From: Pseudomonas sp. B21-015
GTDB lineage: Bacteria; Pseudomonadota; Gammaproteobacteria; Pseudomonadales; Pseudomonadaceae
Assembly: GCF_024749285.1 (NCBI RefSeq)
Contig: NZ_CP087196.1
Span: 1,116,001-1,180,000, forward strand
Direction: 5' to 3'
Length of the DNA: 64,000 nt
The notes under the pieces are model-generated. The model saw nothing but the letters and a program-made list of their open reading frames with translations, was not told the DNA's origin and did no database searches. The position numbers and the translations under genes are program-made. This document shows, in pieces, positions 4,997 through 10,425 of the stretch (positions are counted from its first letter, which is position 1; each line of letters opens with the position of its first letter).

Positions 4997-5770
4997 TCAC
5001 GGCAGATCCTCGATCGGCGGCTTGCTTCGCGCCATGCGCGTGCCGATTGCCAGTGCGGGCTGGTGGGGCTTTTGCGGCAGAGGCCAAAGGACGGGCATGA
5101 TCAGCTCCGGTAAGCTGATCTCCAGTGGACGATACCTGAGCCTGTCGAAGAGGTATCGCGCAACTTTGCCCGCCGACCAGTTGAGGTGTATCGGAGCCTC
5201 GTCCAGGGGGGTATCGATAAAACCTGGGCTGACCACCGTCATTTCGATGTTGTCCGCAGCCATGTCGATGCGCGTGGACTCCAATAGATGACGCAACCCG
5301 GCCCTTGAATCACCATAGGATTCGACCCGGGGCAGGGGCAGCCAGGTTACCGAGCTGGCCATGCCCACCAGATGCGGCGCCGTACCCGCCCGCAGCAGGG
5401 GCCGGGCGGCTGCGATGCAATAACTGCTGGCAAGCAGGTTGGTACGCACGATGTGCTCGATGATGGATGAGTCGAACTGATTGGCGTTGACGTATTCGCA
5501 GGTGCCTGCGTTAAGGATCATGGTGTCCAGAGAACCCCATTCCTTGGCAATTTGCTCGCCGATTTCGCGCACTCTTTGGCCGTTGGTCAAATCCCCCGCA
5601 ACCATCAGCACTTGTCCGGGATAACGCTGAGACAGGGCTTTCAATGGTGCCATCGAGCGGGAGCTGACGGCCAGATGAGCACCTGATTTGAGTATTTCTT
5701 CGGCCAGCGCGGCACCAATACCATTGCTGGCTCCGGTCAACCAATATCGCCTTGGCGGTGTAAGACTCAT
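4997..5770 (-). CDS. Short-chain dehydrogenase/reductase
   Basis: This 257-residue classical-type SDR has the cofactor motif TGASNGIG (residues 12-19), LNAG near residue 88 and Ser139/140. The catalytic Tyr152 is followed by Arg156, where the classical YxxxK has Lys (SYGDSRAG). The NADP(H) preference and substrate are unknown. The ATG at 5768-5770 follows an AAGGA box; a longer open frame to 5833 lacks one. It lies 93 bases after phrB on the same strand and may be cotranscribed with the light module. No terminator-like hairpin lies between them. Confidence 0.85.
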   Translation of the reverse strand: MSLTPPRRYWLTGASNGIGAALAEEILKSGAHLAVSSRSMAPLKALSQRYPGQVLMVAGDLTNGQRVREIGEQIAKEWGSLDTMILNAGTCEYVNANQFDSSIIEHIVRTNLLASSYCIAAARPLLRAGTAPHLVGMASSVTWLPLPRVESYGDSRAGLRHLLESTRIDMAADNIEMTVVSPGFIDTPLDEAPIHLNWSAGKVARYLFDRLRYRPLEISLPELIMPVLWPLPQKPHQPALAIGTRMARSKPPIEDLP

Positions 5771-5863
5771 CCAAAATTCCTTTTTATTAGGCAGTTTTTT
5801 TTGGCTCAATACCAATGAGTGTTCATAAGGCAACGCTCCGGTATCAAAATAATTACGTTGCGA

Positions 5864-7312
5864 TCAACCTTGTCGCGACGGCAGGCTCTTATACGCGGCC
5901 AGTGCTCGTTCGCGGGAAGTGCTCAGGTTGACGATCGGCGGTGGATAATCCCTTACGCCGAGCAATCCGTCGAGACTCGCCGGGTTGTGCAGGTCTTTTT
6001 TATTCAGTTCGTTGAGCTCCGGTAACCAATGCTTGATGAACACTCCTTCAGCATCGAACTTTTCCGACTGGCTCAGCGGGTTGAAAATCCGGAAGTAGGG
6101 TGCCGAATCGGTGCCGGTGGATGAACTCCACTGCCAACCGCCGTTGTTCGCCGCCAGGTCGCCGTCAATCAGATGCTGCATGAAAAAGCGTTCGCCTTCA
6201 CGCCAGTCGATCAGCAGGTTTTTGGTCAGGAACATTGCCACCACCATGCGCAAGCGGTTGTGCATCCAGCCGGTTTCCAGCAATTGGCGCATGGCGGCGT
6301 CAATGATCGGAAAGCCGGTACGGGCTTGCTGCCAGGCCTTGAGTTCTTCCGGGGCGTCACGCCAGGCCAGGGCTTCGGTTTCCGGGCGGAAGGCGCGGTG
6401 CCGGGAAACCCGTGGGTAGCCCACCAGAATGTGTTTGTAGAACTCGCGCCACAGCAGTTCGTTGATCCAGGTGACGGCACCGACCTTGCCGCTTTGAAAC
6501 TCCCCCTGATTGCTTCGTAGCGCGGCGTGCAGACACTGACGAGGGGAAAGGACCCCGGCGGCGAGATAGGCCGAGAGCTGGCTGGTGCCGGGTTTTGCCG
6601 GGAAGTCGCGTTCGCTGTGGTAATGGTCGATCTGTGCGTCGGCAAAGGTGTCGAGGCGGCGTCGGGCTTCGGTTTCGCCGGCCGGCCAGAGAGCACGCAA
6701 GCGGTCGCAGGGTGTATCGAAACCCTCGACACGGGAGGGTGGTTCGTCGTGGTCTATATCGAGCGGAGCCTGGGCAGTGGGTGCAGCGACCAGTCTGGGT
6801 AATGACGCGTGCAGCCGTTCGTAGCAGACCTTGCGAAACTGGCTGAAGACCTGGAAGTAAGTGCCGGTTCTGGTCAGTACGGTGCCCGGCTTGAACAGCA
6901 GTTGATCGAGATAGCTGTAAAAGTCGATGCCCCAGGCTTTCAGCGTTTGGGCCACCGCCGCATCGCGACGGGTTTCATGAGTGCCGTACTCCTCGTTTGC
7001 GTGCACTGCGTCGATCTTCAATTGCTGGCAGAGTTCGAGCAGGACCTTCGGTGCCTCATCCCAGCGGGACGCGTTACGAATCAGCAGCGGGATGTTCAGT
7101 GCGTCCAGCGCCTGGCGTAATTCGCTCAGGTTACGCAGCCAGAAATCCACTTTGCACGGCGCGTCGTCATGCGCAAGCCATTGCTGCGGACTCAGCAAAT
7201 ACACCGCCACACTCGGGCCGCGGGCGGCAGCGGCCGAGAGGGCGGTGTTGTCGTGCACACGCAAGTCGCTGCGCAGCCAGATCAATTGCAGGGGGGTGTC
7301 CGCACGATTCAT
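5864..7312 (-). CDS. phrB: Deoxyribodipyrimidine (CPD) photolyase
   Basis: The photolyase uses blue/near-UV light and reduced FAD to split cyclobutane pyrimidine dimers. The 482-residue protein starts LQLIWLRSDLRVHDNTAL (antenna-binding alpha/beta domain). It has the class I signatures WINELLWREFYKHIL, WMHNRLRMVVAMFLTKNLLIDW and NNGGWQWSSSTGTDSAPYFRIFNP, cut here into parts, for FAD and lesion binding. The frame is open to a GTG at 7339 inside the regulator gene; the ATG at 7310-7312 begins the conserved region. The regulator stop codon lies 14 bases upstream, so the genes are coupled. P. aeruginosa phr (PA4660) is in the same place. Confidence 0.95.
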   Translation of the reverse strand: MNRADTPLQLIWLRSDLRVHDNTALSAAAARGPSVAVYLLSPQQWLAHDDAPCKVDFWLRNLSELRQALDALNIPLLIRNASRWDEAPKVLLELCQQLKIDAVHANEEYGTHETRRDAAVAQTLKAWGIDFYSYLDQLLFKPGTVLTRTGTYFQVFSQFRKVCYERLHASLPRLVAAPTAQAPLDIDHDEPPSRVEGFDTPCDRLRALWPAGETEARRRLDTFADAQIDHYHSERDFPAKPGTSQLSAYLAAGVLSPRQCLHAALRSNQGEFQSGKVGAVTWINELLWREFYKHILVGYPRVSRHRAFRPETEALAWRDAPEELKAWQQARTGFPIIDAAMRQLLETGWMHNRLRMVVAMFLTKNLLIDWREGERFFMQHLIDGDLAANNGGWQWSSSTGTDSAPYFRIFNPLSQSEKFDAEGVFIKHWLPELNELNKKDLHNPASLDGLLGVRDYPPPIVNLSTSRERALAAYKSLPSRQG

Positions 7313-7325
7313 TACAAATTCGCCA

Positions 7326-9308: not shown

Positions 9309-9366
9309 GTTTTTTGCGGGGCTGCAGCCCATCTCGACAGCAGCAATGGACTGGACTTGATTCAAT

Positions 9367-10353
9367 TCACTGCAGGTGCTCATGCAGACGACGGGCTGCT
9401 TCCTGACCACTGAGCCAGGCGCCTTCGACACGGCCGGACAGGCACCAGTCGCCGCACACATACAGTCCCAGATCAGCATCGGCCAGGGCTCCCCATTCAT
9501 GGCTGCTGGCCGGTCGGGCGTAAAGCCAGCGATGAGCGAGGCTGAACGTCGGAGCAGGCATGGCGTCGTGCAGCAGTTCGGCAAAGGCACCGTGCAATTG
9601 CTCGATCACCGCTTCCTTGGGCAGGTCGATATGTTGCCGGCTCCAGGCGCTGGTGGCGTGCAGCACCCAGGTATCGAGGGTGGTGTCGCGTCCCGGTTTG
9701 CTGCGGTTGCGCGCCAGCCAGTCAAGAGGACTGTCCTGTACGAAGCAACCTTCGATGGCGGTTTCCAGTGGCGTGTCGAAAGCCAGGGCGACGGCCCAGG
9801 TAGGCTCCATTTTTACCCCGGCGGCGGCTCCGGCGAGCTTCGGCGCGGCCGCCAGCAGTGCGGTCGCCTGAGGGGCGGGCGTGGCGATGACGACATGGCT
9901 GAACGGGCCGTGAGTGAAACCCTCGGCGTCTTGCAGGTGCCAGTGTTCTTCACCGCGATAGACCTCGGTGATGCGGCAGGCGAAATGCACTTCCAGATCA
10001 CCGAGCAGGCCGCGCGTGATCGCGCTCATGCGTGGTGTGCCGACCCAGCGTGTCTGTTCGTCCGGCGAAGGTCTGAGCTGGCCGCCGTGAAAGGTATAGA
10101 GCTGCGGCGTCCATACGGCGACCCAGCCGTTGGCTTGCCAGCGCTGGACTTCAGTGACGAAGCGACGGTCGCGGGCGGTGAAATATTGCGCGCCCATGTC
10201 CAGAGCACCCGCATCGCTGCGCTTGCTCGACATGCGTCCGCCACTGCCGCGGCTTTTATCGAAAAGTTGAACGACATGCCCGGCCTCCGTAAGGGCCTGG
10301 GCGGCTGAGAGCCCGGCGATGCCGGTGCCGATGATTGCGATAGGTACAGTCAT
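9367..10353 (-). CDS. Renalase-like FAD-dependent oxidoreductase
   Basis: The 328-residue protein begins with the FAD-binding motif [17 protein letters not shown] and has [16 protein letters not shown] and a C-terminal FAD segment ([20 protein letters not shown]). This closely matches the bacterial renalase of plant-associated Pseudomonas, which oxidises the abnormal 2- and 6-dihydro isomers of NAD(P)H back to NAD(P)+. The start ATG at 10351-10353 has a GAGG box; an open extension to 10407 covers the promoter. It is separated from rudS by 137 bases holding a promoter. It is transcribed alone from a promoter with the same operator pattern, so it is probably part of the same response. Confidence 0.82.
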
Positions 10354-10373
10354 AGGGGCCTCGTTTACCTTTC

Positions 10374-10425
10374 TGTACAGACTACGCCGTGGTTCAAACC
10401 TGTACAATATTGTTTTTTGGTATAA
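10374..10425 (-). promoter_or_regulatory. Promoter and putative LitR/PplR operator of the renalase-like gene
   Basis: On the minus strand TTGTAC (10402-10407) and TAGTCT (10379-10384) are 17 bases apart. TTATAC (10420-10425), TGTACA (10401-10406) and TGTACA (10374-10379) repeat the pattern seen at 9252-9308. The first two are again 13 bases apart; the distal spacing is 21 rather than 26. The site also lies about 125 bases before the divergent TIGR01777 gene and might affect it. Confidence 0.6.

What the first reader, a model, noticed from the sequence alone, without database searches (positions are those of the whole stretch)
4997..10425. Light/near-UV response module that pairs a photolyase with a tRNA 4-thiouridine desulfidase
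A RudS-like desulfidase, a LitR-type regulator and a CPD photolyase overlap or abut on one strand; an SDR follows, and a renalase-like flavoprotein lies just upstream. 4-thiouridine is the near-UV chromophore of tRNA, so erasing it when light induces photolyase would be a coherent response: repair DNA and remove the tRNA photosensitiser. The link between RudS chemistry and light control is inference from gene order and operators.
Basis: partly seen in the sequence, partly recalled or inferred. Interest (0 to 1): 0.72.

Follow-up and report, generated by a model that had tools for sequence, protein, structure and literature searches.

The report
Light operon: photolyase plus tRNA-thiolation eraser
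This is the known light-controlled Pseudomonas operon that makes a DNA-repair photolyase together with an enzyme that strips a light-sensitive sulfur mark from tRNA; the arrangement is already published, but relatives add that the eraser is missing in the one sampled species that lacks the enzyme making the mark, and that a renalase enzyme probably answers to the same light switch.

Summary
Observation confirmed. On one strand lie renalase, rudS (TudS-DUF1722), a class II LitR, a class I photolyase and an SDR. An exact LitR-type operator, one of 2 in the 6.59-Mb genome, covers the -35 of the rudS promoter; a one-mismatch copy precedes renalase. ThiI, a second LitR and a short LOV photoreceptor are encoded elsewhere.

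The core is known, not new.

What I add: (1) of 59 Pseudomonas genomes, the only one without ThiI is the only one without any RudS match, yet it keeps renalase, litR, phr, SDR and operators; (2) an operator precedes renalase in 54 of 59; (3) RudS genes in ThiI-less genomes rarely have light-gene neighbours (1 of 21 loci against 40 of 50) and mostly lack the tRNA-binding Arg; (4) two of the 59, and one further Pseudomonas, have lost the TudS half but kept DUF1722 in the operon, resembling E. coli ybgA-phr. Light induction and s4U loss in this strain are not shown.

The parts
10401..10424 (-). LitR-type operator upstream of renalase, TATACC-N12-TGTACA (1 mismatch to TRTACA-N12-TGTAYA)
   Evidence: at most 1 mismatch upstream of renalase in 54 of 59 genus genomes, reversed-pattern control 0 of 59
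9367..10353 (-). bacterial renalase (FAD-dependent; ATG start; ORF extends to TTG at 10407)
   Evidence: end-to-end match to 4zcc, E 2.8e-184
9284..9307 (-). exact LitR-type operator TATACA-N12-TGTACA overlapping the -35 of the rudS promoter
   Evidence: one of 2 exact places in the genome
9268..9295 (-). sigma-70-type promoter TTGACT-N16-TATGAT of the rudS-litR-phr unit
   Evidence: same hexamers and spacing as P6650 of P. mendocina (PMC9758184)
9252..9257 (.). TGTACA half-site between promoter and rudS start; a full second operator in several relatives, only half here
8267..9229 (-). rudS: TudS desulfidase fused to DUF1722; C16, C48, C113, E50, R59, S110, S112, R23, Y24, N25 present
7326..8267 (-). 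class II LitR (PplR1/PmlR1 position): MerR HTH plus B12-binding_2, no C-terminal B12-binding domain match
5864..7312 (-). phrB, class I CPD photolyase
   Evidence: equivalog cut-off passed; E. coli photolyase 1dnp, E 3e-125
4997..5770 (-). SDR-family oxidoreductase, probable last gene of the unit (function unknown)
   Evidence: an SDR lies in the predicted light-induced polycistron of P. mendocina (PMC9758184)

Best explanation
This is the Pseudomonas blue-light regulon core, matching PP_0739-PP_0742. In the dark a class II LitR repressor (this one, its paralogue beside the LOV gene, or both) sits on TRTACA-N12-TGTAYA over the -35 of the rudS promoter and upstream of renalase. Blue light forms the cysteinyl-flavin adduct in a short LOV protein, which takes LitR off the DNA. 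RudS, more LitR, photolyase and SDR are then made as one transcript, and renalase from a separate transcript under its own operator. Photolyase splits CPDs; RudS's [4Fe-4S] TudS domain removes sulfur from s4U8 of tRNA, so near-UV can no longer crosslink tRNA 8-13 and stall growth. Shown here: gene identity, catalytic residues, operators, conservation, ThiI-RudS coupling. Shown by others in relatives: LOV-LitR anti-repression in vitro, light-induced polycistron, s4U erasure in E. coli. Inferred: all of it in this strain, and the renalase promoter.
For: Anatomy and operators. LOV gene next to a second LitR (36% identity) in the same genome. ThiI present. Same class (Gammaproteobacteria): 39 of 40 DUF1722-positive genomes have strong ThiI, against 4 of 47 negative. 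Genus: 58 of 59 have ThiI, and the one without (G571) is the only one with no RudS match, while renalase, litR, phr, sdr and three exact operators stay. Light-gene neighbours of RudS in 40 of 50 loci of ThiI genomes. Literature: PMC11417400, PMC9758184 (passages), PMC11014904 (passages; PP_0738-PP_0742 go up together in a co-culture).
Against: No expression or s4U data in this strain. ThiI coupling and light neighbourhood are shared by descent in many rows, so the Fisher values overstate independence. G193 has RudS, LitR and phr but no strong ThiI; 10 of 50 ThiI-positive RudS loci have no phr or LitR within about 8 kb. Outside the window's family an operator near the rudS start was seen only in L053, L080, L081 and L102, so LitR control of RudS is far from general. 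Three Pseudomonas genomes keep the operon and ThiI but have a TudS-less RudS, so s4U erasure is dispensable there. In the co-culture study the illumination was the same in both arms, so the rise of PP_0738-PP_0742 is not proof of light induction.
Confidence: 0.85

Rival explanations
1. RudS is in the operon to tune the stringent response rather than to remove a photosensitiser: by lowering s4U it limits crosslinked uncharged tRNA and ppGpp after UVA, a signalling role.
For: Proposed by the RudS authors, with the ppGpp comparison of E. cloacae and E. coli (PMC11417400).
Against: Not separable from the sensitiser reading by sequence; the paper found no effect of (p)ppGpp on RudS_KT activity in vitro.
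Confidence: 0.3
2. DUF1722 itself has a second, desulfidase-independent role in the photolyase operon (tRNA binding, or a partner of photolyase), and TudS is an add-on.
For: TudS-less but DUF1722-retaining genes in G593 and G584 (2 of 59 genus genomes) and in G130, with different break points; in G130 and G593 DUF1722 is still in frame behind an N-terminal remnant. litR and phr follow in G584 and G130. E. coli K-12 ybgA (DUF1722 alone) overlaps phr by 4 nt.
Against: YbgA overexpression had no significant effect on s4U (PMC11417400); the remnants may be recent decay or, in draft genomes, assembly errors.
Confidence: 0.25
3. Gene order is historical: rudS and renalase simply hitch-hike in a photoreactivation operon without a joint function.
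For: Renalase away from rudS has no operator (0 of 5: G054, G023, G298, G570, G610), so its light control follows its position.
Against: RudS beside phr recurs in several families in different arrangements; renalase has its own conserved operator, kept in G571 after rudS is gone.
Confidence: 0.1

Closest known systems
P. putida KT2440 PP_0739-PP_0742 / P. mendocina pmlR1 region (Sumi 2020, not held, known to me only through citing papers; Maruyama 2022, passages read)
   Same: phrB, class II LitR, RudS (PP_0741) and, in P. mendocina, an SDR; promoter TTGACT-N16-TATGAT and T(G/A)TACA-N12-TGTA(C/T)A operators; short LOV plus second LitR in the genome
   Different: Here the second operator of the rudS promoter is only a half-site; ufaM, folE and cryB were not looked for in this genome; that PME6650 is the rudS orthologue and PP_0742 the renalase is my inference
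RudS (Jamontas 2024, PMC11417400, passages read)
   Same: TudS-DUF1722 fusion with the catalytic residues named in the paper
   Different: Ser243 of RudS_KT corresponds to T241 here; activity not measured
Bacterial renalase, 4zcc/4zcd/5krq (species P. phaseolicola recalled)
   Same: End-to-end ungapped homology
   Different: Operator-bearing neighbour of rudS; no paper in the held library has both 'renalase' and 'photolyase'
E. coli ybgA-phr pair
   Same: DUF1722 protein overlapping phr
   Different: No TudS domain and no LitR gene in the stretch shown

Membership tests
RudS (tRNA s4U desulfidase) | TudS domain fused to DUF1722 | tested here: met
   PF04463 residues 11-152, PF08349 195-311, both over cut-off
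RudS (tRNA s4U desulfidase) | Three Fe-S cysteines, catalytic Glu/Arg/Ser, Arg-Tyr-Asn near the active site, tRNA-binding Arg244 of RudS_KT | tested here: met
   C16 C48 C113 E50 R59 S110 S112 R23 Y24 N25; R242 in the place of Arg244 (by motif; the KT sequence itself is not held)
RudS (tRNA s4U desulfidase) | s4U synthase ThiI in the same genome | tested here: met
   E 1.1e-60
RudS (tRNA s4U desulfidase) | Lowers s4U in tRNA | not testable with these tools
   needs LC-MS
Class II LitR | MerR HTH and B12-binding_2 but no C-terminal B12-binding domain | tested here: met
   only PF02607; alignments to LitR/CarH structures end at residue 176-177 of 313
Class II LitR | Binds TRTACA-N12-TGTAYA | tested here: inconclusive
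   site present and conserved; binding not tested
Class II LitR | Controlled by a short LOV protein | tested here: inconclusive
   LOV gene present beside a second LitR; interaction not tested
Class I CPD photolyase | PF00875 + PF03441, equivalog cut-off | tested here: met
Bacterial renalase | Full-length homology to 4zcc; 2-/6-dihydro-NAD(P) oxidase activity (recalled) | tested here: inconclusive
   homology met; activity not testable

The most novel reading that the evidence does not exclude
Bacterial renalase is a light-induced repair enzyme: blue/near-UV light and flavin sensitisers make mis-reduced NAD(P)H isomers, and the LitR regulon therefore repairs DNA (photolyase), removes the tRNA sensitiser (RudS) and oxidises damaged nicotinamide (renalase). 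This would give bacterial renalase a physiological setting. Evidence: a LitR operator, mostly 70-78 bp upstream, before 53 of the 55 genus renalase genes that adjoin a rudS match and before the one in G571 that no longer has rudS, and photolyase-family genes within 6 kb of 6 of 27 distant renalases.
Probability: 0.3. Interest if true: 0.65.

Novelty: already known. Interest (0 to 1): 0.4.

Why it matters
It ties an enzymatic eraser of a tRNA mark to a light switch, a case where the trigger, the eraser and the reason to erase (s4U is the near-UV target) can be named together. Since the core is published, the value lies in the tests it opens: a Pseudomonas without ThiI that has dropped only rudS from the operon is a ready-made natural control, the TudS-less DUF1722 genes ask what DUF1722 does alone, and renalase under the same operator suggests a setting for an enzyme whose role in bacteria is, to my knowledge, little described.

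Tried and rejected
Counting bare TGTACA in the genome (899 places against 589 for the reversed control) was useless; the spaced pair was needed. The second exact operator in the genome lies inside a porin ORF and was set aside as chance. A search for a shared neighbour of RudS genes in 20 ThiI-less loci gave mostly antisense or low-complexity ORFs; one same-strand FKBP-like ORF (by eye) just upstream in six loci was not followed up. I considered that the LitR here senses light through B12 (as PMC11417400 states for class II LitR) and rejected it because the C-terminal B12 domain is missing and PMC9758184 suggests that such proteins cannot bind B12. The renalase-photolyase adjacency test against shifted windows of the same genomes gave 6 of 27 against 0 of 20, Fisher p 0.03 only, so I treat it as suggestive. 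The promoter scan found nothing upstream of renalase, so its promoter is not identified.

Rows dropped: one search lists 86 places; I fetched 80 regions. Not fetched as own regions were the window's own, G021, G064, the second match of G048, and the second matches of G017 and G025, which lie in regions fetched for their first matches. Nine of the 80 regions (L122-L130) were left out of the neighbourhood count because their DUF1722 match is partial and they hold no full RudS match. The 71 loci counted come from 70 genomes (G093 twice). Renalase hits are a lower bound: in many genomes only 8 candidates of the first look were scored.
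Full report
What is there. The minus strand of window 4997-10425 carries, in transcription order, renalase (10353-9367), rudS (9229-8267), a LitR-type regulator (8267-7326), a class I photolyase (7312-5864) and an SDR (5770-4997). rudS and litR share one base; 13 nt separate litR and phr. The SDR follows after 93 nt with no terminator-like site on that strand between them. The genome is one 6.59-Mb contig; its RudS is up to 93% identical to those of P. frederiksbergensis and P. mandelii strains, so it is a Pseudomonas near the P. 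fluorescens group (inference).

Identity of the parts. RudS has both defining Pfam domains and the residues that the RudS paper found important in RudS_KT (three cysteines, Glu51, Arg60, Ser111, Ser113, Arg24, Tyr25, Asn26), each one position lower here; in DUF1722 the offset is two, so Arg244 corresponds to R242 and Ser243 to T241 (by motif, because the KT2440 sequence is not held). The regulator has a MerR HTH and B12-binding_2 but no C-terminal B12 domain, which is class II LitR as described in PMC9758184 (passages read). The photolyase passes the equivalog cut-off. The flavoprotein is a bacterial renalase by sequence, aligning without gaps to 4zcc, stronger than 'renalase-like'.

Regulation. 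TRTACA-N12-TGTAYA, the PplR1 consensus quoted in PMC9758184, occurs exactly twice in the genome. One lies at 9284-9307 over the -35 of TTGACT-N16-TATGAT at 9295-9268, the hexamers and spacing mapped for P6650 in P. mendocina; the other is inside a porin ORF. A one-mismatch copy lies at 10401-10424, upstream of renalase, where the promoter scan found no sigma-70-like match. A second LitR (36% identity, not domain-scanned) sits beside a short LOV gene with the CRFLQ cysteine motif at G000:5466474-5470259, closest to solved 'regulatory protein' and 'sensory box' LOV proteins (that 3sw1 is PpSB1-LOV is recalled). So the light-sensing chain described in relatives is present.

Conservation. In the 80 Pseudomonas loci kept (the best 80 of 288), the order renalase-rudS-litR-phr-sdr holds in 77; two lack renalase in the stretch and one lacks the sdr; a rudS operator with at most one mismatch is found in 80 of 80 and the exact promoter string in 60 of 80. 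In a separate sample of 59 genomes of the genus, which includes the window's, renalase is present in 59 of 59. An operator with at most one mismatch lies within 300 bp or 400 bp upstream of it in 54 of 59: 30 of 30, 24 of 28, 0 of 1 for G054; the reversed-pattern control gives 0 of 59. Of the 55 of these that adjoin a rudS match, 53 have it. Three genomes of a sister genus have it too (L162, L163, L165). Where renalase lies away from rudS (G054, G023, G298, G570, G610) there is none: 0 of 5. A rudS operator was found in 29 of 30 loci and in 24 of 25 (the exception is the TudS-less G584). Outside the window's family a site with at most one mismatch near the rudS start was seen only in L053, L080, L081 and L102 among the regions, so elsewhere RudS must be controlled otherwise.

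RudS and s4U synthesis. In 299 genomes of the phylum, DUF1722 was found in 78. Strong ThiI (PF02568, E below 1e-20 and no stops, read by eye) was counted in 110 of 299; hits around 1e-6 to 1e-12 with frames mostly of 350-400 aa I took to be MnmA-like and not ThiI (inference). In the 87 genomes of the window's own class among these, 39 of 40 DUF1722-positive genomes have strong ThiI and 4 of 47 negative ones do (G273, whose ThiI match has stops, was counted as negative). The RudS paper already reported such a link (94% of DUF1722 species encode ThiI) and two groups without ThiI (PMC11417400). What I add is the genus level: 58 of 59 genomes have ThiI, and the exception, G571, is also the only genome without any RudS match (for G571, G570, G610, G584 and G054; for the others). 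In G571 renalase, litR, phr and SDR remain in order, with two exact operators and the promoter string that precede rudS elsewhere now in front of litR, and the renalase operator exact; an ORF of up to 106 aa sits between renalase and litR. This is what is expected if RudS serves s4U and the rest of the operon does not. It is one event, so it is suggestive, not proof.

Neighbourhoods. Of 71 RudS loci (L051-L121, 70 genomes, the window not counted), 41 have a photolyase-family (E at most 1e-10) or LitR-like gene (E at most 1e-8) within about 8 kb; split by ThiI this is 40 of 50 with ThiI and 1 of 21 without. Several ThiI-less stretches are short contigs (4-10 kb), which lowers their chance. The ThiI-less RudS keep the seven catalytic positions in 21 of 21, but the position of tRNA-binding Arg244 is Arg in 2 of 21 (Pro, Val, Leu and others in the rest), against Arg in 37 and Gln in 11 of 50 with ThiI. 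They may act on another substrate, or s4U may be made by another enzyme there; lineage alone could also explain it, since all but G193 are outside the window's class.

TudS-less versions. In the genus sample 56 of 59 genomes have a RudS match that covers all three cysteine positions; G571 has none, and G593 and G584 have lost the TudS half (with G570, G610 and G054 read from L308, L307, L306). G130, from the phylum sample, has also lost it; break points differ, and in G130 and G593 DUF1722 stays in frame behind a remnant of the N-terminus (no N in these stretches). All three genomes have ThiI. In E. coli K-12 ybgA, DUF1722 alone, overlaps phr by 4 nt. DUF1722 may thus have a use of its own; the RudS authors saw no significant s4U effect of YbgA.

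Renalase elsewhere. In 274 genomes of the class, 29 have a renalase match (a lower bound). Around the 27 that are neither the window nor G023, a photolyase-family gene lies within 6 kb in 6 (L173, L182, L183, L186, L190, L194), confirmed by Pfam as PF03441 in all six, in L183 only in a 74-aa ORF, with MerR-family genes in L173 and L186; some of the 27 stretches are cut by contig ends. Twenty shifted windows in 20 of those genomes had none (Fisher p 0.03). No paper in the held library contains both 'renalase' and 'photolyase', and the only paper with at least four of LitR, renalase, RudS, amine oxidase, light-inducible and Pseudomonas is the RudS paper, which does not mention renalase. Sumi 2020 is not held and may list the renalase orthologue among its light-inducible genes; whether the FAD-dependent oxidoreductase PME6625 in the P. 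mendocina polycistron is a renalase I could not tell. A co-culture study reports PP_0738-PP_0742 going up together, under equal illumination (PMC11014904, passages read).

Literature position. PMC11417400 (passages read) states that RudS genes are often in light-responsive operons, that one LitR-controlled operon encodes PhrB, LitR and RudS, and speculates on light-induced s4U removal. PMC9758184 (passages read) predicts a nine-gene light-induced polycistron from RNA-seq and qRT-PCR, maps promoter and operators, and shows LOV acting as anti-repressor of LitR in vitro. The finding is therefore a correct independent reading of a known system. I score the core as already known and keep the interest for the renalase link, the G571 natural control, and the DUF1722 question.

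Noticed in passing
L322 (G571:C1:973000-992900): The only ThiI-less genome of 59 Pseudomonas has lost rudS but kept renalase, litR, phr, SDR and three exact operators; an ORF of up to 106 aa overlaps the renalase end.
   Followed up: yes
L056, L160, L323: RudS genes that have lost the TudS catalytic half but keep DUF1722, with different break points.
   Followed up: partly
L061, L086, L087, L089-L092, L094, L095, L106, L112-L121: RudS with intact catalytic residues in genomes without strong ThiI, without light-gene neighbours and mostly without the tRNA-binding Arg; substrate unclear.
   Followed up: partly
L102 (G193): RudS with LitR, photolyase and an exact operator in a genome without strong ThiI: the one exception to the coupling within the class.
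   Followed up: no
L182, L194: Distant renalase genes with two photolyase/cryptochrome-family genes nearby each.
   Followed up: partly
window 11467-12492: An ORF that looks like ferrochelatase (by eye, not scanned) follows a YfcH-type epimerase divergent from renalase; haem genes next to a light operon may or may not be meaningful.
   Followed up: no
window 4519-4606: Long inverted repeat (gtgggagcgggcttgctcgcgaa and its complement) downstream of the unit, resembling a Pseudomonas REP doublet (recalled).
   Followed up: no
L112, L113, L115-L118: A same-strand ORF resembling an FKBP-type peptidyl-prolyl isomerase (by eye) just upstream of RudS in six ThiI-less loci.
   Followed up: no
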